The notes: generated from the letters alone by a model not told the origin. DNA of 64,000 nucleotides from an uncultured Rikenellaceae bacterium (GCA_946486375.1 CAMLTW010000011.1:1-64000), one strand, 5' to 3'; counted from the first letter of the stretch, positions 44,491-60,221 are shown. A program made the numbers and translations.

Positions 44491-45441
44491 ATGCCTTTTC
44501 ATTTAGGGAATGACCAGTCTGTGTATATAGAGCTTACTAATCCGATTCACGGTGGAGAAGGATGGGATTTTGGGGAATTTTTGTGGAGCCCTACACGAAA
44601 TAATATAGGAGGTGATAGTTGGGGAATACTCCGTAAATTGAAGCCAGGAGATATTGTGATTCATTCTCTTAAATTTCCAGGTAAAAATCATGAGTTTGTA
44701 GGGGTATCCTTGGTTAAAGGAAAATGTATTGAGACATGTTCTGAACCGTTTAATCCAGGAAGGTGGAAAGGATATTACAAATATTATAAGGTACCCTTAC
44801 AATTTTATAGCCCTTTCCAAAAACCCTTGTCGGTAAAAAGCTTTTTGGAAGAGTTTAAGGACCAACTTATATTTTTAAATATCTCAAACACTTTTTACAC
44901 AAAAGACGCAAAAAAGTGTTGTCAAAAATACGTCGCTTCCGTTCCTAATGTGTTGTTTAATTTGTTGATAGAGTTCTTTGAGAAAAATAATGTTACTTTA
45001 TTTGAACATATTCTTCTACAGGACGAGGGAGAAAATGTTGCAAGCGAGAAAGAAAGAGGAGCGCCCAGAGTAAAAACAACGATTGAGCGAACTATTAGGG
45101 ATACCGCCATTGTAAAAGAACTGAAGAAAGAGTATGATAATCGTTGCCAAATATGTGGAAGAAAAATAATCTTACCAAACGGGAATGGTTATTCTGAAGG
45201 TCATCATCTACAAAAACTTAACCCTCAACATTTGGGGCCTGATATAAAGGAAAATATAATTATTTTATGTCCTACCCATCATGCAGAATTCGATTTTGGA
45301 GCAATCGGAATCAATAGCGATTATAGGATAGTACATATTGATCCCAACAATGAATTCAATGGAGCGCAATTAGCCTACTCCAGAAAAGATTTAGGAGAAA
45401 TTTATTTACACTACCACATGAAAAAAATATTCAGTAAATAA
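44491..45441 (+). CDS. EVE/PUA-like domain fused to an HNH endonuclease
   Basis: 316 residues in strikingly AT-rich DNA. Residues about 20-115 look like an EVE/PUA-type modified-base reader: FLWSPTRNN, WGILRKLKPGDIVIHSL and HEFVGVSLVKGK. A mostly helical linker follows, then an HNH nuclease from about 200: Cys219/Cys222 in NRCQICGRK, GYSEGHHLQKLNP with His238/239, and NIIILCPTHHAEFD with Cys260 and His263/264. Fusions of this kind cut DNA carrying modified cytosine, so a modification-dependent (type IV-like) restriction enzyme against phages is the likeliest role. It is a single gene ended by the hairpin at 45450. Composition suggests recent transfer. Confidence 0.78.
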   Translation: MPFHLGNDQSVYIELTNPIHGGEGWDFGEFLWSPTRNNIGGDSWGILRKLKPGDIVIHSLKFPGKNHEFVGVSLVKGKCIETCSEPFNPGRWKGYYKYYKVPLQFYSPFQKPLSVKSFLEEFKDQLIFLNISNTFYTKDAKKCCQKYVASVPNVLFNLLIEFFEKNNVTLFEHILLQDEGENVASEKERGAPRVKTTIERTIRDTAIVKELKKEYDNRCQICGRKIILPNGNGYSEGHHLQKLNPQHLGPDIKENIIILCPTHHAEFDFGAIGINSDYRIVHIDPNNEFNGAQLAYSRKDLGEIYLHYHMKKIFSK

Positions 45442-45899: not shown

Positions 45900-46727
45900 G
45901 GGTATAAAGCCGCACCGATCGCCCTTCAGGACGTGGTGGAAATGATGCTCAATGCAACGCAAAACTATAAACAGCCGCTTGACGAAGAGCGCCTATTTGG
46001 ATGGCACGCTGCTCTGTTTCCTCTTGGAAGAAGCAAAATGCACCGGATTTGATGGTGCTCGTTACCGCAGCGGAGAAATGCAGGTTAGTTCGAGAGCAAT
46101 GGGTAAAGAAAAATTCCATTACGAGGCCCCAGCTCCGCAGACGGTAAAAAGCGAAGTGGATGTTTTTGGTTTGGTTCAACCGGGATAACAGTTTAGACCT
46201 GGTTTTGAAGGCAGAGATAGCTTATTTCTGGCACAATATAACTCACCCTTTCGACAATGGTAACAACCGAATCCTGCGAGCGTTGTCTGGTATGCTGCTT
46301 GCATGCTCAGACAACACTTCCCAGCGTTTTACAGTCTATCCAACCAAATACTGACTGAAAGAAAAACTTATTACAAGACCCTGAAGAAAATTCAATTCAG
46401 CGACGGGGATATGACCCAGTAGCTCATTTGGTATCTGACATATCTGTATCGTGTCCCACAATCCATGGAAACCACTTTTCAGAAAGTGAGTGTAAAAGCC
46501 CAATTTTGAGTCGGACACAAGATGACAGAGCTAAATACGCGCCAACGACTCATACTTAATAAATTGCTTGATGGATTCGAAGGAAAACCCGCTTTTCTCT
46601 AAGTGAGCAAAAATAACCAAATCTTCTCGAACTGCTCTTTTACGCGATACCCAGGATTTAATTGAAAAGGGCATCTTACAGTAAGAAGCTCAAGGTGGCC
46701 GAAGCACCAATTGTGAATTAGCCACTT
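45900..46727 (+). pseudogene. Decayed Fic family gene (DUF4172-Fic type)
   Basis: Family similarity runs rightward through several frames: VVEMMLNATQNYKQPLDEER then LFGWHAALFPLGRSKMHRI; next frame SGEMQVSSRAMGKEKFHYEA; next frame FNRDNSLDLVLKAEIAYFWH with HPFDNGNNRILRAL, a worn form of the Fic active site HPFxDGNGR; then the winged-helix tail RQRLILNKLLDGFEGKPAFL, DTQDLIEKGIL and GGRSTNCEL. At least three frameshifts and several stops are needed, and the N-terminal DUF4172 part is missing. The parent would have AMPylated target proteins. Now dead. Confidence 0.8.
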
Positions 46728-47255: not shown

Positions 47256-47285
47256 TTGCATATTGAATAATAAATATTATATTTG
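47256..47285 (+). promoter_or_regulatory. Promoter of the radical-SAM peptide cluster
   Basis: TTG (47256-47258), a 19-base spacer and TATATTTG (47278-47285) fit the Bacteroidetes -33/-7 pattern. Transcription would begin near 47292 and leave a leader of about 118 bases before the precursor ATG at 47411. Confidence 0.68.
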
Positions 47286-47410
47286 TTAGGCAACCTTGGT
47301 TCAATCAACCGGTTGGCGTTGACAGCTTACCCTATGATTGGATTGAGACTTTATTTTCATCCTTTTTATCAAATTACTTTTTACTCCATTAACACCTAAA
47401 ATTTAACCTT

Positions 47411-47875
47411 ATGAAAAGCTTCGAACAGATCAACGGCTCGCTTCAGGCATGGATCCGTGCCATGAAAGAAGGAAAAGCGAATGGCGACACGGCAAATGCC
47501 GTCATGAACGGACAAGAGTTAAAAAAGGATGCGCTCGAGCTGGTCAGCCAGTTGCAGAACTCCCTGACCGGCAAGGACAGGGAGCAATTCGATGAACTCC
47601 TCAAAGCCATCAATGAAAAGGGACCCGAAATGCGGGAAAGCATCGCCCAATTGGTTTATGAAGGGAAAACGTCCCATGAAGACTTCCAAAAGGTCTTGGC
47701 CCAGTATGGCATCTCCGGTTCGCAGCCCGTGGTCAACGGCTGCGAGGTTTGCTCGGCTTGCAGCGCCTGCGTTTCCTGCACCATATGCGCCTTGTGCGTC
47801 GTTACAGGTATCGAAGCGGCATCCGTAACGTCGGCAATCTCCGTCGTCGAAACCGTAAGCGCTATCAATGGCTGA
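47411..47875 (+). CDS. Ribosomal peptide precursor with a seven-cysteine (Cxx)n core
   Basis: 154 residues. Residues 1-110 form a charged, helical leader (SFEQINGSLQAWIRAMKEGK; EDFQKVLAQYGISGSQPVVN). At residue 110 a Gly precedes CEVCSACSACVSCTICALC, in which Cys 111, 114, 117, 120, 123, 126 and 129 fall exactly every third position. A tail of about 25 small and hydrophobic residues follows (VVTGIEAASVTSAISVVETV). The leader has no cysteine. The gene directly precedes two radical SAM/SPASM genes, the classical setting of thioether-bridged RiPPs. Known Bacteroidetes targets include CXXX-repeat peptides; a CXX repeat is different. A hairpin after the stop would favour surplus precursor mRNA. 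A metal-binding peptide is the alternative, less likely given the neighbours. Confidence 0.82.
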   Translation: MKSFEQINGSLQAWIRAMKEGKANGDTANAVMNGQELKKDALELVSQLQNSLTGKDREQFDELLKAINEKGPEMRESIAQLVYEGKTSHEDFQKVLAQYGISGSQPVVNGCEVCSACSACVSCTICALCVVTGIEAASVTSAISVVETVSAING

Positions 47876-47903
47876 TCGTAATTAACGCACGAAATTGAGT
47901 TTT

Positions 47904-47947
47904 TCTGACCTTGAGAAGGATGCCGCACATTCTCAAGGTCAGATTTT
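47904..47947 (+). terminator. Attenuating hairpin between precursor and maturase genes
   Basis: TCTGACCTTGAGAA (47904-47917) pairs perfectly with TTCTCAAGGTCAGA (47930-47943) over a 12-nt loop and is followed by TTTT. It sits 28 bases past the precursor stop and 27 before the first maturase start. No promoter is seen after it, so partial read-through probably sets a high precursor-to-enzyme ratio. Confidence 0.82.
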
Positions 47948-47970
47948 AACCCTTACTTACCCCGATTACC

Positions 47971-49464
47971 ATGCACCCGATTGATTTTCATGTTTTCCGA
48001 ACCAGTTCCGGGAGCCAATATTTGTACGATGTAAATACCAATACGGTACATCCGCTCAGCGACGGCATTCCGGAAGAGGTGATCCGGGATATTTATGCCG
48101 CCCAAACAGCAGACCGCTTGGGTGCACTATCGGAAAAATATCCCGCCCATCAGTCTTTTTTCAGGTATGCAACTCTATGGCGGAGCCACACCGACGCATT
48201 CCGGAATCATCCGCCTCAGGAGAAAACGTACCTGCGAAGTATAGCGGAAGCTCAGAAAAACCAGTTGATCACCAGCCTTGCCTGGGATTTGATCCTGATC
48301 ACTACCGAACAGTGCAACATGCGATGCGCCTATTGCGTCCATGAGCAAGACCTCTATCCCAACCGAAGACCGCACGGCTCGAAATCCATGAGTTTGGAAA
48401 CGATGAGAAAAGCCATCGATCTGTATTTCGCCATGAATCGCTCCGACCGGGTGCGCCCGTTTAAGAACAGAGCGCTTAATATCGCCTTTTACGGCGGCGA
48501 GGCGCTGTTGAATTTCCGTGCGATCAGGGAAGCCGTATCCTATGCCCGGGAGAGCTATGACGGTCCTTTCGAATTACACCTGGGCATATCCACAAACCTC
48601 ACCCTGTTCGATCCGCAATGGTTGCCTTTCCTGCGCGACAACGAAGTTTCGCTCAGCATAAGCCTGGACGGCCCCCAAAAAGAACATGACCGTTACCGCC
48701 GGATGAAAAACGGGGCGCCCTCCTTTGAAATCCTCGAAAAGAAGTTGAAGATGATCCATGAGTTCGACGGCGAATATTTTAAAAACTACCTGTCGGCCAA
48801 CATTACGACAAACGGGAATACGCAATTTATGGACGTGGTGCGCTTTTTCGAGGAGGAACACGAGCGCGTTCCTAAAATCCAGGCCATTTCTCCACTCAAA
48901 GATTTGGAAACCTCGCATTTCCATCAGATGTATCCATATGATCGTGAGGCATACATAGAATCCATCCGGGCACTGAACCATTATTTTACGAGCGAATGCC
49001 TGGCCGGTCGGCAATTCGTCAAGGGGGAGGCCCTTTATGCATTCACCTACAATTTCGTGAGCGATTTTTACAATAGCCCGCATTTCATCAGCCGACGCAA
49101 AAACTGGTACACGGGCAGTTGCATCCCGGGTCGCAAGATCACCGTCACCCCTGACGAATACATACATGTGTGTGAAAGAGTCGGTACGGGACGACCCGTG
49201 GGAGACCTTGACCGGGGAATAGACGAAGAAAAAATCCTCGCCTATTTCAATGAATTCCTGGCCTCTACGGATGATTGTCCTAAGTGCTGGGCCCGGAACC
49301 GATGTAAAATATGTCCGGCTGAAGTGGACAGCGATTCGGGTGACTGCTATTTCGAGAACCGTTGCGAGCAGATGCGAAACAACCTGAACCGGCAATTTGT
49401 CAATGTCTACTCGCTTCTTGAACAAAAGCCCGATCTGTTTGCGGGCGAATACGAATATTTTTAA
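47971..49464 (+). CDS. Radical SAM/SPASM peptide maturase 1
   Basis: 497 residues. The N-terminal part (YLYDVNTNTVHPLSDGIPEE) resembles the peptide-recognition region of SCIFF/ranthipeptide-type maturases. The radical SAM cluster is CNMRCAYC, Cys115/119/122, followed by LNIAFYGGEALLNFRAIREA and VSLSISLDGPQKEHDRYRRM. The SPASM end starts at GSCIPGRKITVTPDEYIHVC (Cys384) and continues with DDCPKCWARNRCKIC, CYFENRC. This SG.C.PG.....V.......C pattern is known from enzymes that join Cys sulfur to peptide carbon. I infer that it installs thioether links in the neighbouring (Cxx)7 peptide. Spacing of 12 bases to the next gene shows an operon. Confidence 0.87.
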   Translation: MHPIDFHVFRTSSGSQYLYDVNTNTVHPLSDGIPEEVIRDIYAAQTADRLGALSEKYPAHQSFFRYATLWRSHTDAFRNHPPQEKTYLRSIAEAQKNQLITSLAWDLILITTEQCNMRCAYCVHEQDLYPNRRPHGSKSMSLETMRKAIDLYFAMNRSDRVRPFKNRALNIAFYGGEALLNFRAIREAVSYARESYDGPFELHLGISTNLTLFDPQWLPFLRDNEVSLSISLDGPQKEHDRYRRMKNGAPSFEILEKKLKMIHEFDGEYFKNYLSANITTNGNTQFMDVVRFFEEEHERVPKIQAISPLKDLETSHFHQMYPYDREAYIESIRALNHYFTSECLAGRQFVKGEALYAFTYNFVSDFYNSPHFISRRKNWYTGSCIPGRKITVTPDEYIHVCERVGTGRPVGDLDRGIDEEKILAYFNEFLASTDDCPKCWARNRCKICPAEVDSDSGDCYFENRCEQMRNNLNRQFVNVYSLLEQKPDLFAGEYEYF

Positions 49465-49470
49465 AGGAGG
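49463..49470 (+). promoter_or_regulatory. Shine-Dalgarno sequence of maturase 2
   Basis: AAAGGAGG lies 6 bases before the ATG at 49477 and overlaps the maturase 1 stop codon. Strong Shine-Dalgarno sequences are uncommon in Bacteroidetes; this one fixes the start and implies coupled translation. Confidence 0.7.
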
Positions 49471-49476
49471 ATCGGG

Positions 49477-50754
49477 ATGGAATACTTTAATTTATACAAT
49501 CACTGTTACTTTCATCGAGGCGAGAAAAACGCTGCCGTATACGACATATTTCAGAAAAGGATTTTCTGGATCGAGGATTCCCGCAAAATCGATTTCCTGG
49601 ACATGAGCCGTCGCGGCTTGAGCCTTTCCGAAATCAGCCGCCGGTTGAGCGTCGAAGAGAGCCTGATCCGGAATTTTGCCGCCTTTTATGAAACAGTGGA
49701 GTTGGGTGCCTTTTACGAGTCGCCGAAGGTCAGCCCCAAATACCGGCCCTTCATCCATCCGCATCTCGAAAGGGAAAAATCGTTCTATCGTCCGCTGGGC
49801 GTCGTTTCTCTGGAAGTCTCTTCCCGGTGCACCGGTCAATGCTGGTTTTGCGACTCCGATAAAAGACTGGCGAGTCTCGAATGCACCTGCGGATGTTTCT
49901 CGAATCGCCCCAAAATCGAATATGCGATCGACGAGGTGATCGGGCATTTGGCCTGCGCAGCTCCCGCCTCCATCGAACTCACCGGGGGAGACCCTTTCTC
50001 TAATCGGGCCGATACACTATCCTGCATCATGGCCGCTTCGCGGCACTCTATTCCCGTAAACGTACGTACTTTCGGGAGCCTGCTTACGAGCCGGGATATT
50101 GTTTTTCTGAAACAGTACAAAGCAAGCATGTCGCTCGTTCTTTCGAATTTCGCGCCGGAGTCTTCTCAAGAGGATATCGCCAGGATTTCTCGGATTCTCT
50201 CCTGGTCCGCCGCGGAAAAGTATTTCGATATCGACGTCGTTTTACTGATGGATGAAAATCACGTCGAACAGTTGGAGGCCGCCAGGCAATGGTTCGGAGG
50301 GATCGGACTGCCGATACGCACTGTCACTTTGTATTATCCTGTCGAACTGTTGCATGCCACGGATAATGAACGGAGCCAGCGGCTCAAAGCATGCCTGATG
50401 TCCTCGCCGGACCGGTTTGCAGTCGATATGAACGGACTGGCCCGTAATGTAAAGGGGCACTCCTGTTGGCAGGATCATCTTTGCATTCTGTCGAACGGCG
50501 ACGTAACACCTTGCCTGGCTGAACGGGATCACGTCTACGGAAATGCCAAAACAGAGAACATTCTGGATATCATTCGCGGCAAAAGATCCGAAAAACTGAT
50601 GGGGATGACGAAACAGACCATGGATGAGCGTTGTGCGCATTGTGAATTTTCCATCGGCTGTGCCCCCTGCTCGGTTGCGACTAAGAAAATGCAGGGTTCC
50701 TATGAAAAGCCGGGGTGGAATTGTGTTTACCGACCGGATATCGGACGATTCTGA
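49477..50754 (+). CDS. Radical SAM/SPASM peptide maturase 2 with N-terminal recognition-like domain
   Basis: 425 residues. Residues 1-85 (NAAVYDIFQKRIFWIEDSRK; GLSLSEISRRLSVEESLIRN) look like a PqqD-type peptide-binding winged helix. The radical SAM motif is CTGQCWFC, Cys118/122/125, followed by SIELTGGDPFSN. Extra cysteines occur just after it (LECTCGCFS). The SPASM part is GHSCWQDHLCILSNGDVTPC then CAHCEFSIGCAPC. It differs strongly from maturase 1, so the two may make different changes to one peptide, or one may act as a partner. A full CxxxCxxC motif argues against a pseudo-rSAM protein. No transporter or leader peptidase follows; a hairpin closes the cluster at 50834. Confidence 0.86.
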   Translation: MEYFNLYNHCYFHRGEKNAAVYDIFQKRIFWIEDSRKIDFLDMSRRGLSLSEISRRLSVEESLIRNFAAFYETVELGAFYESPKVSPKYRPFIHPHLEREKSFYRPLGVVSLEVSSRCTGQCWFCDSDKRLASLECTCGCFSNRPKIEYAIDEVIGHLACAAPASIELTGGDPFSNRADTLSCIMAASRHSIPVNVRTFGSLLTSRDIVFLKQYKASMSLVLSNFAPESSQEDIARISRILSWSAAEKYFDIDVVLLMDENHVEQLEAARQWFGGIGLPIRTVTLYYPVELLHATDNERSQRLKACLMSSPDRFAVDMNGLARNVKGHSCWQDHLCILSNGDVTPCLAERDHVYGNAKTENILDIIRGKRSEKLMGMTKQTMDERCAHCEFSIGCAPCSVATKKMQGSYEKPGWNCVYRPDIGRF

Positions 50755-50833
50755 ACCCTCTGAAAACGCTTTTTTCAGTCGGCATACCATTCCGGATGCT
50801 GAAAAAGCGATCATCAACCATGTCCCAAATCAT

Positions 50834-50872
50834 AGCCCCGATGCAATGCAGGCCGCATCGGGGCTGTGTTTT
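50834..50872 (+). terminator. Terminator closing the RiPP operon
   Basis: AGCCCCGATGC (50834-50844) pairs perfectly with GCATCGGGGCT (50855-50865) over a 10-nt loop and is followed by GTGTTTT. It lies 80 bases past the maturase 2 stop. Confidence 0.78.
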
Positions 50873-51917: not shown

Positions 51918-53915
51918 TTAATCTTGCATTTGAGATATATCGGTTAGTTCTTTTAAATCCTCAGGAATTACTATTCGAGATTCATATGCGATAATATTTG
52001 CATTGTCATAATATTGACTATAAAGACATTTGCCAACAAAAAATTCTACGATTAATGTTATTGCGGGAAGAACCCAAGTGACAACCTTGTTTACATCTCT
52101 ATCTAATCCTGTATAAATTAAGTAACTCATTACGGAGCATATCACTAATACAGATACAAATAAAAACCAAGTCCGTCCTCTCCACTTTGCTAAAGCTCGA
52201 TTTGTTATTTCTTTTCTTTTAATCTGTCGAATTTCATTAGTTGTCTTCAGCCGTTTCAATTTTTCAGCATCTAAATCAGCTGATTTCGGAGACATATTAG
52301 CAACTCGTTCTAATTTGTTAAGCAGACCTTCAAATCTTTGAATCCTTTCATTTTCCTCTTTTTCCTGCTTCTCGGCTTCCTCTTTTATGGTTGCTATGAA
52401 TTTCTGACCATCGTTTTTAGCGAGATTGTTCAAACTTTCGATGCCTTTTAATTCTTTATTACTTATTCTAGTAGCAACTTTTATAATATCGATATCGGTA
52501 AGTGTAGAATCTTTTTGGTATTTCTGAATATTCTCATCAAGTTCTTTTATTATTGCTGAATGCGGTAAATCCGAATTAAGAGTGTATGCAATAAGAGAGT
52601 TCAACCCACTATCAATCACCTCATCTTCCAGAGAATTCACTAAATCTGGTTTAGCAAACCAAAGAATATTTAACAAATCATCAGCTCTTATTACTTCTGG
52701 TAAATATCCATTTTGAGAGTGATACTCTATGCTGTCTGTTTCTAAATCTCGATTGAAAGAATTATTCACAAACCAACATTTTGCATCTTCGAAATGCTTT
52801 ATGCGTTTATTCCCTCTTTTTTCTCTAACATATAGCTTAGCCGTGATATCATGCAAAGCGGCAAAATCACTATTTCTGTATCTTTTAAGTTCTGTATATT
52901 CTATGCTGACCCTTGCTTGATTCTTATATTTTTCCGTATATGGAACAGGAGTAATATTAAATTCATCTGCTAATGTTTTTTCCAGACCATCAGCAATTTT
53001 TTCCAAATCGCTCCTGTTTAATTTACGTCTAATACAAGCATTCCAAATATCTTCGGGATTTACTAATTTAGAGAGAAATGTATTTTCAAAATTTTCGGCT
53101 TTTTTCATTAGAAGTCCGTATGTTTCTTCTAACGTAATATTCAATACTCTAAACGAATAGCCAAACTTTGATGCTATTTTCAGCAATTCCCTACAAGTAT
53201 TAGTCGATTCTGTGGTGTTGAGGTCTAATAAACTAACAATGAAATTGGTGTCAAAAATAAGTTCGACCTTATTATTCTCTGCTTCTTGAATCTCATATTC
53301 TAAATAGCATGAAATAATTGAACCTAAATATATTTGGCGTATCAAATTGAAACAATCTGGAAGTTTTTTGAAAAAATCCACAAATTGAGCCTCTACCGAA
53401 AAATCTTGTGAAGAACCTTTTGATTTAATGGCTAAGTATCTTCCTATTCTCTCCTTATTGCTATCAATAAAATCAAATATAGAAGTGCTTCCAGTATAAT
53501 TCAGATTGGCTATTGAACAAAAATCCTCGAAATATTTCTGAACAAAAGCTACCTTTTGACGATTATGTTCAATAACCTCATTAAACGCTTCAAATTTGTA
53601 GTTTTTAATCCAAAAACTTCCATCCTTATATAATGCCAGCTTAGTATCTTCTTTGGTATTGATTTCCTGCCCAATTTTTAATAGAATTTTATTTAGGATA
53701 GAATTTGGGAATGGGAGAAAAAAATTCTTTAAAATCCATTCCTTTAATTCGTTTGTTGATTCTCCTTTATATTGACACTCCTCTGTAGTAAAACGATATA
53801 AGGCATATTTTACAATAGGTACAAAAATATCAATACTACTATTGATGAAATTTCCTGTATTTCTTATTTGAGCAAGCAGTGAATAGGTGACAACCTTATC
53901 AATCTCCATAATCAT
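51918..53915 (-). CDS. Large AT-rich gene: PIN-like domain with coiled coil and C-terminal membrane anchor
   Basis: 665 residues from the ATG at 53915 (ATG at 53909 also possible). The first 215 residues are helical without recognised motifs. KVELIFDTNFIVSLLDLN (Asp222) looks like the first acidic motif of a PIN-type nuclease, with later acidic candidates in TLEETYGLL and RNSDFAALHDITAKLYV. Residues about 500-570 are a charged coiled coil (EEAEKQEKEENERIQRFEGL). Two membrane segments follow (WFLFVSVLVICSVMSYLIYT; VVTWVLPAITLIVEFFVG). I do not recognise the full family. A membrane-tethered RNase used in phage defence is a reasonable guess, given the AT-rich DNA and neighbours. Confidence 0.7.
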   Translation of the reverse strand: MIMEIDKVVTYSLLAQIRNTGNFINSSIDIFVPIVKYALYRFTTEECQYKGESTNELKEWILKNFFLPFPNSILNKILLKIGQEINTKEDTKLALYKDGSFWIKNYKFEAFNEVIEHNRQKVAFVQKYFEDFCSIANLNYTGSTSIFDFIDSNKERIGRYLAIKSKGSSQDFSVEAQFVDFFKKLPDCFNLIRQIYLGSIISCYLEYEIQEAENNKVELIFDTNFIVSLLDLNTTESTNTCRELLKIASKFGYSFRVLNITLEETYGLLMKKAENFENTFLSKLVNPEDIWNACIRRKLNRSDLEKIADGLEKTLADEFNITPVPYTEKYKNQARVSIEYTELKRYRNSDFAALHDITAKLYVREKRGNKRIKHFEDAKCWFVNNSFNRDLETDSIEYHSQNGYLPEVIRADDLLNILWFAKPDLVNSLEDEVIDSGLNSLIAYTLNSDLPHSAIIKELDENIQKYQKDSTLTDIDIIKVATRISNKELKGIESLNNLAKNDGQKFIATIKEEAEKQEKEENERIQRFEGLLNKLERVANMSPKSADLDAEKLKRLKTTNEIRQIKRKEITNRALAKWRGRTWFLFVSVLVICSVMSYLIYTGLDRDVNKVVTWVLPAITLIVEFFVGKCLYSQYYDNANIIAYESRIVIPEDLKELTDISQMQD

Positions 53916-54007: not shown

Positions 54008-54916
54008 TCAGACCGTAGCCGCCGGGCTGTCCGCGATTTTCCGGTCGTAGTAGGCGAAGCGTTCGCGGCAGATTTTTTCCACGATCCGGCCCAGCAGTTC
54101 CACCTTCGGGCGCAGGGCGTCGATGTCCGCTTTTGTCACCTCGAAAGTATCATTATAGCGTGCTTCCACATAGGCCCGTTGCAACAGCTCGAAAAGCCGT
54201 TTTTCTTCCGGCGTGTCCTGCGGGAAAACCGCCGCCAGCTCCAGCGTGCAGGCTTTGCATTTTTCGAGCAGATACCCCAGTTCGTGTTCCTTGTATCCGT
54301 ACAGGGCATATACCAGCGGAATGGATTTCAGGAAATACTCCGTAGCCTGATGCAAGAAGAAAGAACAATCCGCATATTCTTCATCATTATATGCTACTTG
54401 TGCATATCGTAAAAATCTATGAGCACGGGGATATTTTACCGCATAGTATTCTTGCGCCATTTCCTTAATCTCGCAGAAATCCAGCGATCGCGGCGCAGCC
54501 AGTTCATGCTTCCCGGAATCGTAAAGCACGATTCCTCCGTTCACGATCTCGACATAGAAATAGCGTCCTTCCGAAAGGGCGTGGTTCAGCTTCGCGATGC
54601 TTTCGGTAATGATCTGCGGTCGCGTCTGAAACTCCGCGTCCTTGCCCTGCATGAACCGTTCGGCGATCCGTTTGGTCGCCGTGGACTCCCGGTTTCCCAA
54701 CCGACGGTTCGTTACCACCAGCAAATCGTAGTCGCTTATATAATAGGTCTTCACGCCGAAATCCCGCCGCTCGTCGCATTCCACGTACGTACCGCGGGCA
54801 TAGCTTCCGTACAGGATCACCATTACCGTGTCCGGGATTTCTTCGCGGATCAGCGACACCAGCTCCCGCAGGTCGGCCTGTTTGCGTTCGGGCAGAAACT
54901 CCATCGTGCTGTTCAT
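54008..54916 (-). CDS. Nucleotidyltransferase (MNT)-HEPN fusion protein
   Basis: 302 residues from the ATG at 54916. The N-terminal domain is a minimal nucleotidyltransferase: VMVILYGSYARGTYVEC with Gly37/Ser38, then SDYDLLVV with Asp62 and Asp64. The gap between the two is longer than usual because of an inserted stretch (DERRDFGVKTYYI). The C-terminal domain (about 155-290) is helical HEPN: CSFFLHQATEYFLKSI, ELGYLLEKCK, YVEARYNDTFEVTKADIDAL. In separate-gene MNT/HEPN pairs the HEPN is an RNase toxin and MNT modifies it; joined proteins of this kind are common and may be self-contained. I see no classical Rx4-6H motif, so RNase activity is uncertain. TAAATTTG on the minus strand at 54922-54929 lies only 5 bases from the ATG. 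Confidence 0.8.
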   Translation of the reverse strand: MNSTMEFLPERKQADLRELVSLIREEIPDTVMVILYGSYARGTYVECDERRDFGVKTYYISDYDLLVVTNRRLGNRESTATKRIAERFMQGKDAEFQTRPQIITESIAKLNHALSEGRYFYVEIVNGGIVLYDSGKHELAAPRSLDFCEIKEMAQEYYAVKYPRAHRFLRYAQVAYNDEEYADCSFFLHQATEYFLKSIPLVYALYGYKEHELGYLLEKCKACTLELAAVFPQDTPEEKRLFELLQRAYVEARYNDTFEVTKADIDALRPKVELLGRIVEKICRERFAYYDRKIADSPAATV

Positions 54917-54951
54917 AGACACAAATTTAGGAAGATTCTGCCAAAAACACA

Positions 54952-54981
54952 TTGCACGACGGATTTAAATTCATACATTTG
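54952..54981 (+). promoter_or_regulatory. Orphan rightward promoter
   Basis: TTG (54952-54954), a 19-base spacer and TACATTTG (54974-54981) match the consensus. Downstream lies a 41-codon frame (ATG 55075, start MAEGGSVRFDDNATYPLSG) that I do not recognise, then the oppositely directed XRE gene. Possible products are a small peptide or an RNA antisense to the XRE gene. Confidence 0.5.
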
Positions 54982-57793: not shown

Positions 57794-58285
57794 CTATAAC
57801 TTCAATGCCCTGTTTTCCACACGTATACGAACAAACAGCATCAGGGCGTTGAGCAAACTGAACACGATTGCCGTAAAATAGAGATGAAATATGAGCGGTA
57901 TAAGCGTTATCTCAGCAATCACTATTACGTAATTGGGATGCTTCATAAATCGGTAAGGCCCCTTTTTCACCAACGGGCAATCGGGGATACGATAAATCCG
58001 CGTGTTCCAGAATTTACCCAGTGAAAAAACAGTCCAGGCTTTGAATCCCAGCAGCAGGAAGTAAAGCACAAGCAATGGGATACTGTAACCCTTTTCCGGA
58101 GTAAGAACATACTCCGTGACTAAGGATACGAAAAAAAGAACATGCAGCAGAACGATACAGGGGTAGTGCCTTCGTCCGTACTCTACGGCTCCCCGGGCCA
58201 ATAACCAGCGTTCGTTGCGTCGCGCCAAAAGCAGTTCGCCCAGGCGAAGCAGCAACACGAACAGGACAAAAAGGGCAAAGACCAT
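57794..58285 (-). CDS. ICMT-family membrane methyltransferase (BpsB/YpbQ-like)
   Basis: 163 residues with about four to five membrane helices (MVFALFVLFVLLLRLGELLL; VLLHVLFFVSLVTEYVL; LPLLVLYFLLLGFKAWTV analogue near residue 70). The conserved C-terminal motif is PLVKKGPYRFMKHPNYVIVI followed by a Glu, the isoprenylcysteine carboxyl methyltransferase signature. It starts 3 bases after the type III PKS stop. The same gene order exists in Bacillus bpsA-bpsB, where the protein O-methylates alkylpyrones, so the same job is inferred here. Confidence 0.84.
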   Translation of the reverse strand: MVFALFVLFVLLLRLGELLLARRNERWLLARGAVEYGRRHYPCIVLLHVLFFVSLVTEYVLTPEKGYSIPLLVLYFLLLGFKAWTVFSLGKFWNTRIYRIPDCPLVKKGPYRFMKHPNYVIVIAEITLIPLIFHLYFTAIVFSLLNALMLFVRIRVENRALKL

Positions 58286-58288
58286 CGC

Positions 58289-59347
58289 TTACCGATTGAG
58301 TTGCAGCAGTACCATTTCACTCGAAAACCCCGGCCCCATGGCCATCATCAGGCCGTATCCTTGCTCATATTCCTGAAGGATCCGGGCAAGTACATACAGC
58401 ACCGTTGCGCTGGACATATTGCCGTAGTTGCGCATTACCTCCCGCGTGAAGCGCAGCGCGTCTTCTTGCATGCCCAGGGCCGCTTCGTAAGCGCTCAGCA
58501 CCTTTTTGCCGCCCGGATGGAAAATGAAGTTTCGGATATCGGATAGGGTGAGCCCCTGCGCGGACAGGAATGCCGTGACGTCTTCCCGGACATTGCCGGC
58601 GATCAAGGCCGGTATTCCCGGCGAAAACAGCACTTTGAAGCCATTGTCCGTAAAATCCCAACCCATGATGTCCTGCGTGTCGTAGTAGAGCCGGCTCCGG
58701 GCGGCCTGAAAGCCGATTTTCCCCGTTGCGGGATGGGCGACTCCGTCGCCCAGAATCAGGCAGGCCGCTACACCGTCGGCAAACAGGCAGGAGCCGATGA
58801 AGTTGCTTTTGCTTGCGTCGTGGCGCAGGAATGTAAGCGAGCACAACTCGACGGCGACCAGCAGCACGGTTGCTGCCGGATTCGCTTTCGCAAGCGTGCA
58901 AGCCTTTGCAAAACCCGATACTCCGCCGCCGCATCCCAGACCGAATATCGACATGCGGTTCACGTGCGGGTTGAGCCGCATCCGGTCTATGATGAGAGCA
59001 TCCATACCGGGCGTCGCAAGTCCGGTGGTGGAAACGAATATCAAATCCGTTATTTTGTCTTTCGCGAGACCTGCCACCGAAAGGGCCTTTTCGGCGGCTT
59101 CCATCGAGTATGCGAGTGCAAGGCGGATATATTCACGGTTTTGCTCCTCGAAGGTATGGGGTTGTTCGCAGTATGCGAGCGGCTTGCACAGGTTCCGGCT
59201 CTCAATTTCGGAATGGTCGAACACCTGCAACAGGCGTTCCGTATCCCCGAAGGAAGGAGCGAACACCCTTTTTGCAAAATTTTTAACCGCTTGCTGCGAA
59301 GTCTTGTGGGGAAAATCTATGGTGGAGATGGCTGCTAAAGAAGGCAT
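58289..59347 (-). CDS. Type III polyketide synthase (chalcone synthase-like)
   Basis: 352 residues, full length for the family. The catalytic triad is visible: Cys139 in IFGLGCGGGVSGFAKAC, His277 in NFIFHPGGKKVL and Asn310 in MRNYGNMSSATVLYVL. Other marks are VSTTGLATPGMDALI and CLFADGVAACLILGDG. The enzyme would extend a fatty acyl or other CoA starter with malonyl-CoA units to an alkylpyrone, resorcinol or similar ring. Cytoplasmic, possibly handing its product to the adjacent membrane methyltransferase. Type III synthases are uncommon in Bacteroidales. The pair lies beside a relaxase fragment and tRNA genes, which suggests acquisition. Confidence 0.93.
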   Translation of the reverse strand: MPSLAAISTIDFPHKTSQQAVKNFAKRVFAPSFGDTERLLQVFDHSEIESRNLCKPLAYCEQPHTFEEQNREYIRLALAYSMEAAEKALSVAGLAKDKITDLIFVSTTGLATPGMDALIIDRMRLNPHVNRMSIFGLGCGGGVSGFAKACTLAKANPAATVLLVAVELCSLTFLRHDASKSNFIGSCLFADGVAACLILGDGVAHPATGKIGFQAARSRLYYDTQDIMGWDFTDNGFKVLFSPGIPALIAGNVREDVTAFLSAQGLTLSDIRNFIFHPGGKKVLSAYEAALGMQEDALRFTREVMRNYGNMSSATVLYVLARILQEYEQGYGLMMAMGPGFSSEMVLLQLNR

Positions 59348-59398: not shown

Positions 59399-59806
59399 CT
59401 ACGATGCGTTTGTTTGGTTCCGGTATCGGTCTACGGCGCTTCGTACCACTGACGACACCCGCGCCTTGACGTCGCCACGGGGGTAATCTACCTTTTTCAT
59501 ATCCCACAAATCCGGATTCACGTCTTCCTCCCGCTCTTTCCCCTTTTCCACCCGGTAGAGTCCGTACTCTTTTTCGAACTCCCGCATGATCGGCCGGGAG
59601 CGTTTGCCTTCGTTGTCGTGCTCGATCTTCTTTCCGGCGCGGTCGATCCGGCAGGCTATGATATGGATGTGCTCGCGGTCGATGTCCCGGTGAAGGTACA
59701 CCACATACGGCTGTTCTCCGTACCCCATGCGGCGCATGTACCGTTCGGCGATCTCGGCCAGCAATACGCTGGCAGTATAGAAATATTGCGGGATAAAAGG
59801 CAGCAA
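59399..59806 (-). pseudogene. Fragment of a conjugative-transposon relaxase (MobB-like)
   Basis: Similarity to CTnDOT-type relaxases covers LLAEIAERYMRRMGYGEQPY, VVYLHRDIDREHIHIIACRI (the H...HxH metal site), RSRPIMREFEKEYGLYRVEK and VDYPRGDVKARVSSVVRSAV. The N-terminal part carrying the catalytic Tyr is missing, as is most of the C-terminus; full proteins are about 300-400 residues. The first dozen residues of the open frame are unrelated. A leftover of a mobile element that once lay next to the tRNA genes. Confidence 0.75.
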
Positions 59807-59952: not shown

Positions 59953-59987
59953 GCTACATATTTCAGCCTGTCTGTAAGGCTCTCTTG

Positions 59988-60060
59988 AGCGGAAGACGAG
60001 ATTCGAACCCGCGACCCTTAGCTTGGAAGGCTAATGCTCTACCGACTGAGCTACTTCCGC
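59988..60060 (-). tRNA. tRNA-Gly (TCC)
   Basis: 73 nt on the minus strand: acceptor GCGGAAG, D arm AGCTCAGTCGGTAGAGC, anticodon stem TTAGC/GCTAA with loop CTTCCAA (anticodon TCC) and T arm CGGGTTCGAATCTCG. Last of three tRNAs transcribed together. Confidence 0.95.
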
Positions 60061-60064
60061 AAAA

Positions 60065-60139
<75 letters not shown>

Positions 60140-60148
60140 CTTTTTCGG

Positions 60149-60221
60149 AGCGGAAAACGAGACTCGAACTCGCGACCCCAACCTTGGGAAGGTTGTGCTC
60201 TACCAACTGAGCTATTTCCGC
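60149..60221 (-). tRNA. tRNA-Gly (CCC)
   Basis: 73 nt on the minus strand: acceptor GCGGAAA, anticodon stem CAACC/GGTTG with loop TTCCCAA (anticodon CCC), T arm CGAGTTCGAGTCTCG. First gene of the three-tRNA transcript. It differs from the GCC tRNAs at 167 and 45482 by only a few bases. Confidence 0.95.

What the first reader, a model, noticed from the sequence alone, without database searches (positions are those of the whole stretch)
47256..50754. Candidate new RiPP system built on a (Cxx)7 core peptide
The 154-residue precursor has cysteines at residues 111, 114, 117, 120, 123, 126 and 129, exactly every third residue, and none in its 110-residue leader. Two radical SAM/SPASM genes follow in one operon with its own promoter and terminator. 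Established knowledge: ranthipeptide/SCIFF and CXXX-repeat peptides are processed by this enzyme class. A strict CXX period would put successive side chains about 120 degrees apart on a helix and may give a new thioether pattern. Novelty is inference.
Basis: partly seen in the sequence, partly recalled or inferred. Interest (0 to 1): 0.92.

Follow-up and report, generated by a model that had tools for sequence, protein, structure and literature searches.

The report
Predicted seven-rung sactipeptide from a Bacteroidete
A bacterium of the phylum Bacteroidota appears to encode a small peptide that two radical enzymes staple into a hairpin with up to seven sulfur bridges, like the known antibiotic thurincin H but almost twice as long; the chemistry is predicted from sequence and has not been shown.

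Summary
There is a 154-residue ORF with Cys at 111, 114, 117, 120, 123, 126 and 129 and none elsewhere, followed by two radical SAM genes in one operon. After the last Cys, polar residues sit at every third position (E135, S138, S141, S144, E147, S150, N153), with mostly hydrophobic or small residues between. That is the layout of type I sactipeptides, nested hairpins of Cys-S-to-alpha-carbon bridges. The period (3) and turn (last Cys to first acceptor, +6) equal those of thurincin H, which has four bridges; here seven fit. The enzymes also point to sactipeptides. The closest two-gene match found is a Ruminococcus albus plasmid pair beside huazacin-family precursors, and the cysteine spacings match the published TrnC/TrnD pair of thuricin CD. 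The leader (110 residues) has no relative I could find, no NCBIfam cut-off is met, and no relative of the operon turned up in the Bacteroidota genomes searched. Best reading: a new, unusually long variant of dual-radical-SAM sactipeptides. Bond number and chemistry are inferred.

The parts
47256..47285 (+). Bacteroidetes-type promoter, TTG-N19-TATATTTG
   Evidence: Read directly from the sequence; consensus TTTG/N19-21/TAnnTTTG from established knowledge, not tested
47411..47740 (+). Leader of the precursor, residues 1-110, no Cys, predicted all-helical
   Evidence: single-sequence AlphaFold2 gives five helices at low-to-medium pLDDT, about 56-74; no family and no PDB fold match with E<=0.001
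47741..47797 (+). Donor half of the core: (CXX)6C, Cys111-129
47813..47869 (+). Proposed acceptor half: E135 S138 S141 S144 E147 S150 N153, every third residue
   Evidence: 8 of 8 polar in register (with T132) against 2 of 17 out of register, Fisher p 4e-5; 1 of 20000 shuffles as good over periods 2-5; nested sum 264, gap 6
47904..47943 (+). Hairpin between precursor and maturases, probable partial terminator that would keep precursor transcript in excess
   Evidence: -22.2 kcal/mol, z -5.8, followed by ATTTT; function inferred
47971..49464 (+). rSAM1: TrnC-type radical SAM/SPASM maturase, proposed catalyst of the thioether bridges
   Evidence: SPASM Cys 384, 401, 436, 439, 445, 448, 459/465
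49477..50754 (+). rSAM2: TrnD-type partner radical SAM/SPASM protein
   Evidence: full-length relative next to the rSAM1 homologue on R. albus pRUMAL03
50831..50868 (+). Operon terminator-like hairpin
   Evidence: -27 kcal/mol

Best explanation
The operon makes a type I (nested-hairpin) sactipeptide. rSAM1 and rSAM2 work together: rSAM2 helps bind the leader and rSAM1 abstracts the alpha-hydrogen of acceptor residues and joins each to a cysteine sulfur. Starting at the turn and working outward, the bridges would be C129-E135, C126-S138, C123-S141, C120-S144, C117-E147, C114-S150 and C111-N153: a seven-rung ladder, against four in thurincin H. A protease then removes the long helical leader, perhaps near VVNG/C111. 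Shown here: the ORFs, the double period-3 layout, the cysteine motifs, and the matching gene order beside huazacin-family precursors in R. albus. Inferred: the S-C-alpha chemistry, the number of rungs, the division of labour (taken from TrnC/TrnD), the cleavage site, and any antibacterial activity.
For: 1) Core geometry: seven Cys every third residue, then seven polar residues every third residue, nested sum 264, gap C129 to E135 = 6. Thurincin H is Cys4-Ser28, Cys7-Thr25, Cys10-Thr22, Cys13-Asn19 (PMC8172795): same period, same gap of 6. 2) Enzyme pair: R. albus 7 plasmid pRUMAL03 carries two huazacin-family precursors (NF037972, 50.1 bits) followed by homologues of rSAM1 (28% identity) and rSAM2 (23% over full length) in the same order. 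3) Cysteine spacing: TrnC SPASM is Cx16C x36 Cx2Cx5Cx2C, TrnD is Cx2Cx5C plus C412 (PMC12093266); rSAM1 is C384x16C401 x34 C436x2Cx5Cx2C448, rSAM2 is C386x2Cx5C395 plus C416. 4) Published precedent: thuricin Z (ThzC/ThzD) and thuricin CD (TrnC/TrnD) both use two rSAM enzymes for nested sactionines. 5) Closest solved structure by sequence to rSAM1 is 5wgg, a thioether-forming maturase (CteB by prior knowledge), E 2e-21.
Against: No chemistry is shown. The precursor matches no family, including huazacin. rSAM1 scores below every curated cut-off, and its best model is CcpM (202 of 500 bits), whose product chemistry I do not know. The expected glycine in the SPASM Cx11Gx4C motif is Glu396. The 110-residue leader is far longer than the 9-residue leaders of gnavucin D and thurincin H (PMC13239113). 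No transporter, protease or immunity gene is adjacent, and no C39-peptidase exporter was found in the genome. An alternative nested register (sum 261, gap 3, first acceptor T132) also gives seven polar acceptors. No relative is available to test covariation of donors and acceptors. The R. albus precursors do not have Cys every third residue.
Confidence: 0.66

Rival explanations
1. A ranthipeptide: the two enzymes join Cys sulfurs to beta or gamma carbons of acceptors (Glu, Ser, Asn), in nested or non-nested order.
For: rSAM1 is distantly like CteB and has weak PapB and SCIFF scores; two of the seven proposed acceptors are Glu, and PapB joins Cys to Asp or Glu (abstract of PMC9413430).
Against: Known ranthipeptides place the acceptor among the cysteines (prior knowledge); here the residues between Cys are mixed (EV, SA, SA, VS, TI, AL) and an acceptor row lies after the Cys block. 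The TrnD-like partner is described for sactipeptides. Scores are far below cut-off.
Confidence: 0.17
2. A radical-SAM-modified peptide with a different product (epimerised, C-C linked, or only part of the Cys used), the period-3 core being an amphipathic helical hairpin.
For: Radical SAM/SPASM families carry out many reactions (one search shows weak hits to cyclophane and other maturases); single-sequence AlphaFold2 draws helices at 122-132 and 142-152 at low confidence.
Against: Seven Cys in strict register with seven polar residues is best explained by cross-links; the nearest two-enzyme system is beside huazacin-family (sactipeptide) precursors.
Confidence: 0.12
3. Not a RiPP: a Cys-rich metal- or cluster-binding protein that lies by chance next to two radical SAM genes.
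For: CxxCxxC motifs bind metals, and the precursor search matches a ferredoxin-like stretch weakly; (CXX)n tracts exist in viral contigs without rSAM motifs nearby.
Against: Shared operon with a promoter and a hairpin after the first gene, a separate Cys-free leader, and the acceptor register.
Confidence: 0.05

Closest known systems
Thurincin H (Bacillus thuringiensis, thnA/thnB)
   Same: Cys every third residue in the first half of the core, acceptors every third residue in the second half, gap of 6 at the turn, nested (published positions)
   Different: Four rungs against a possible seven; one rSAM enzyme (ThnB) against two; 9-residue leader against 110; three precursor copies and dedicated transporter and protease genes, none seen here
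Thuricin CD (TrnA/TrnB with TrnC/TrnD)
   Same: Two adjacent rSAM enzymes; first with seven-Cys SPASM motif at nearly the same residue numbers, second with Cx2Cx5C plus one more Cys
   Different: Two different 3-bridge peptides against one precursor; donor Cys spaced by four (C5, C9, C13); rSAM2 here keeps extra Cys (330, 346, 398) and passes the Pfam SPASM cut-off
Thuricin Z/huazacin (ThzA, ThzC, ThzD) and the R. albus pRUMAL03 cluster
   Same: Two rSAM genes after the precursor(s), full-length similarity to both R. albus enzymes
   Different: Cys period four and gap of ten in thuricin Z; no HuaA model match for the window precursor; ABC transporter genes present there, absent here
Bacteroidales GG system (TIGR04148 rSAM plus TIGR04150 pseudo-rSAM)
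   Same: Same order of bacteria and two-gene order; rSAM2 aligns over its whole length with TIGR04150 proteins in profile comparison (359 columns, prob 87, E 4e-6)
   Different: TIGR04150 partners lack the CxxxCxxC motif that rSAM2 keeps; rSAM1 scores 168 of 300 bits for TIGR04148

Membership tests
Type I (nested-hairpin) sactipeptides | Cys donors in the N-terminal half of the core, acceptors in the C-terminal half, nested order possible | tested here: met
   seven Cys then seven polar residues in register, permutation 1 of 20000
Type I (nested-hairpin) sactipeptides | Sulfur-to-alpha-carbon bonds, minus 2 Da each | not testable with these tools
   Needs mass spectrometry or NMR
Ruminococcin C-type sactipeptide maturase | Curated model RumMC NF035951 above cut-off (720 bits) | tested here: not met
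   165.1 bits
Thuricin CD/Z-type dual-rSAM systems | First enzyme: CxxxCxxC plus seven-Cys SPASM motif | tested here: met
   Cys spacing matches, but Gly of Gx4C is Glu396
Thuricin CD/Z-type dual-rSAM systems | Second enzyme: CxxxCxxC plus Cx2Cx5C and a further Cys, truncated SPASM | tested here: inconclusive
   C118/122/125, C386x2Cx5C395 and C416 present; SPASM is less truncated, Pfam SPASM 36.5 bits
Thuricin CD/Z-type dual-rSAM systems | Direct sequence similarity to TrnC/TrnD or ThzC/ThzD | not tested
   I did not have those sequences; the R. albus pair served as proxy
Huazacin family precursor (NF037972) | Precursor above 35 bits | tested here: not met
   No match at E<=10 for precursor or core
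SCIFF / ranthipeptide | Maturase models TIGR03974 or PapB NF047865 above cut-off | tested here: not met
   99.6 of 425 and 116.4 of 340 bits
CXXX-repeat peptides | Cys every fourth residue and maturase TIGR04115 above cut-off | tested here: not met
   Period is 3; 58.1 of 350 bits
Bacteroidales GG system | TIGR04148 and TIGR04150 above cut-off | tested here: not met
   TIGR04148 167.8 of 300; TIGR04150 not listed for rSAM2

The most novel reading that the evidence does not exclude
A Bacteroidota sactipeptide with seven nested sulfur-to-alpha-carbon rungs on one hairpin, a longer ladder than any I found described, built by two radical SAM enzymes on a precursor with an unusual 110-residue helical leader; the ladder length would be set simply by repeating the three-residue unit on both strands.
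Probability: 0.45. Interest if true: 0.75.

Novelty: new variant of a known kind. Interest (0 to 1): 0.6.

Why it matters
If true, it shows that sactipeptide ladders can be lengthened by repeating a three-residue unit, takes nested sactipeptides into a Gram-negative phylum where a 2023 survey called class I bacteriocins of Bacteroidales elusive (PMC10352776), and gives a regular substrate for asking how an rSAM pair sets bridge order and number. The profile link between the partner enzyme and the cluster-less TIGR04150 proteins suggests one lineage of partner subunits that keep, or lose, their own radical chemistry.

Tried and rejected
Precursor hits in two same-family genomes (G059, G042) were read and rejected: one is a low-complexity CNA repeat, the other a ferredoxin-like CxxCxxC stretch. 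The (CXX)7 DNA pattern in 395 genomes of the class gave mostly antisense collagen-like or simple repeats; among the same-order genomes listed only this locus and one simple repeat matched. The same pattern in viral contigs gave repeats and Cys-rich tracts, none resembling this precursor. TIGR04148/TIGR04150 loci (L013-L015, L051, L053) were first taken as homologous systems; they are a related but distinct family, without a (CXX)n precursor seen nearby. Profile hits of rSAM2 in other genomes of the order cover only the C-terminal part, as grasp-with-spasm proteins would (that identity is inferred). Viral and phage collections gave no relative of rSAM1, rSAM2 or precursor, nor of the R. albus rSAM2. 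AlphaFold2 without an alignment failed for rSAM2 (mean pLDDT 37) and was weak for the precursor (55); its fold search gave nothing. The core matched nothing in the PDB sequence search, as expected for so short a peptide.

Full report
OBSERVATION. The ORF 47411-47875 encodes 154 residues with Cys only at 111, 114, 117, 120, 123, 126 and 129. Equal spacing by three has a chance of about 7e-7 given seven Cys in the 44-residue core, and the five-Cys version of the DNA pattern occurs nowhere else in the window, with none in 100 shuffles. Two radical SAM genes follow at 47971-49464 and 49477-50754, and the third-position G+C of all three ORFs (0.60-0.67) is close to that of ordinary genes of the window (0.68-0.71). 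A Bacteroidetes-type promoter precedes them and a strong hairpin follows the last gene; a second strong hairpin separates precursor and enzymes.

The 25 residues after the last Cys are VVTGIEAASVTSAISVVETVSAING. Read in threes, T132, E135, S138, S141, S144, E147, S150 and N153 are all polar, while only 2 of the other 17 residues are (Fisher p 4e-5; 1 of 20000 shuffles reaches this over periods 2-5). Seven cysteines every third residue are therefore followed by seven polar residues every third residue. Folding the chain at VVTGI pairs C129-E135, C126-S138, C123-S141, C120-S144, C117-E147, C114-S150 and C111-N153. Published thurincin H bridges are Cys13-Asn19, Cys10-Thr22, Cys7-Thr25 and Cys4-Ser28 (PMC8172795): the same period on both strands and the same +6 step at the turn. 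Thuricin Z is also nested, with period four and a step of ten. A register shifted by three (T132 as first acceptor) also gives polar acceptors but a turn of only two residues; I think it less likely.

THE ENZYMES. rSAM1 resembles many thioether-forming maturases, none above cut-off: CcpM 202 bits, TIGR04148 168, RumMC 165, lachnocin 149, PapB 116, SCIFF 100. Its nearest solved relative by sequence is 5wgg. rSAM2 keeps CxxxCxxC and a SPASM domain and has only weak family hits. In the plasmid collection rSAM2 had a single match, on Ruminococcus albus pRUMAL03. There it directly follows a homologue of rSAM1, and both follow two copies of a huazacin-family precursor. Identities are 28% (rSAM1) and 23% (rSAM2) over essentially the full length, and shared features of rSAM2 include the FC-x-SD motif and extra cysteines after it. 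[quoted passage not shown] rSAM1 and rSAM2 repeat those spacings. I could not align them to TrnC/TrnD directly.

RELATION TO OTHER BACTEROIDOTA SYSTEMS. In the same order, TIGR04148 rSAM genes are followed by TIGR04150 pseudo-rSAM genes. rSAM2 aligns with those along its length, so the partner subunits may share ancestry; the pseudo-rSAM proteins lack the radical cluster motif. This link rests on one profile comparison of shallow alignments.

DISTRIBUTION. There is no true relative of the precursor in the 268 genomes of the family; the best rSAM1 matches are 25-30% identical in the family and order samples; a full-length rSAM2 relative is absent from 316 genomes sampled across the phylum. The neighbourhood holds a tRNA-Gly, a Bro-N gene and low-G+C genes, consistent with an accessory hot spot and gain by transfer (inference). 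The window lies in Bacteroidota, judged from SusC/SusD-type genes and promoter type; the species is not known to me.

HOW IT LIKELY WORKS. Transcription of the precursor in excess of the enzymes (hairpin, inferred); leader recognition by the enzyme pair; sequential S-C-alpha bridge formation; removal of the leader by an unlinked protease; export by unlinked machinery, since no transporter is adjacent and no C39 peptidase was found in the genome. Activity against other bacteria is a guess by analogy. Only the sequence features are shown.

NOVELTY. I found no report of more than four sactionine bridges on one nested hairpin in the papers searched; the library lacks most subscription journals, so this is weak evidence. 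I file it as a new variant of a known kind. What is unusual is the possible seven-rung length, the Bacteroidota host and the 110-residue leader.

Noticed in passing
window 57794-59347 (-): A type III polyketide synthase (chalcone/stilbene synthase-like) next to an isoprenylcysteine carboxyl methyltransferase-like membrane protein; looks like a small biosynthetic pair.
   Followed up: no
window 59399-59806 (-): Relaxase (MobA/VirD2) fragment of 135 residues near three tRNA genes at 59987-60221, suggesting a mobile-element remnant.
   Followed up: no
window 54008-54952 (-): Protein with nucleotidyltransferase and HEPN domains, possibly a toxin-antitoxin or defence-type gene.
   Followed up: no
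window 51918-53915 (-) and 44491-45441 (+): Two genes with markedly low third-position G+C (0.25 and 0.30) flank the operon; the second has an HNH domain. They look recently acquired.
   Followed up: partly
window 46160-46354 (+): Short ORF with HPFDNGNNRILR, reminiscent of a broken Fic-type motif; possible gene remnant upstream of the operon (read).
   Followed up: no
L087, L094, L129 (viral contigs): Long (CXX)n tracts such as CIDCKDCKNCINCTRCINCTNC, with no radical SAM-like motif found in the locus; a strict Cys-every-third period has other uses.
   Followed up: partly
L052:6304-6564 (-) in G212: 86-residue Cys-rich, Gly-rich peptide with LGGCYECGCCEVCTC next to a 547-residue Cys-rich ORF whose region matched rSAM1; another possible radical SAM RiPP in the same bacterial family.
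   Followed up: no
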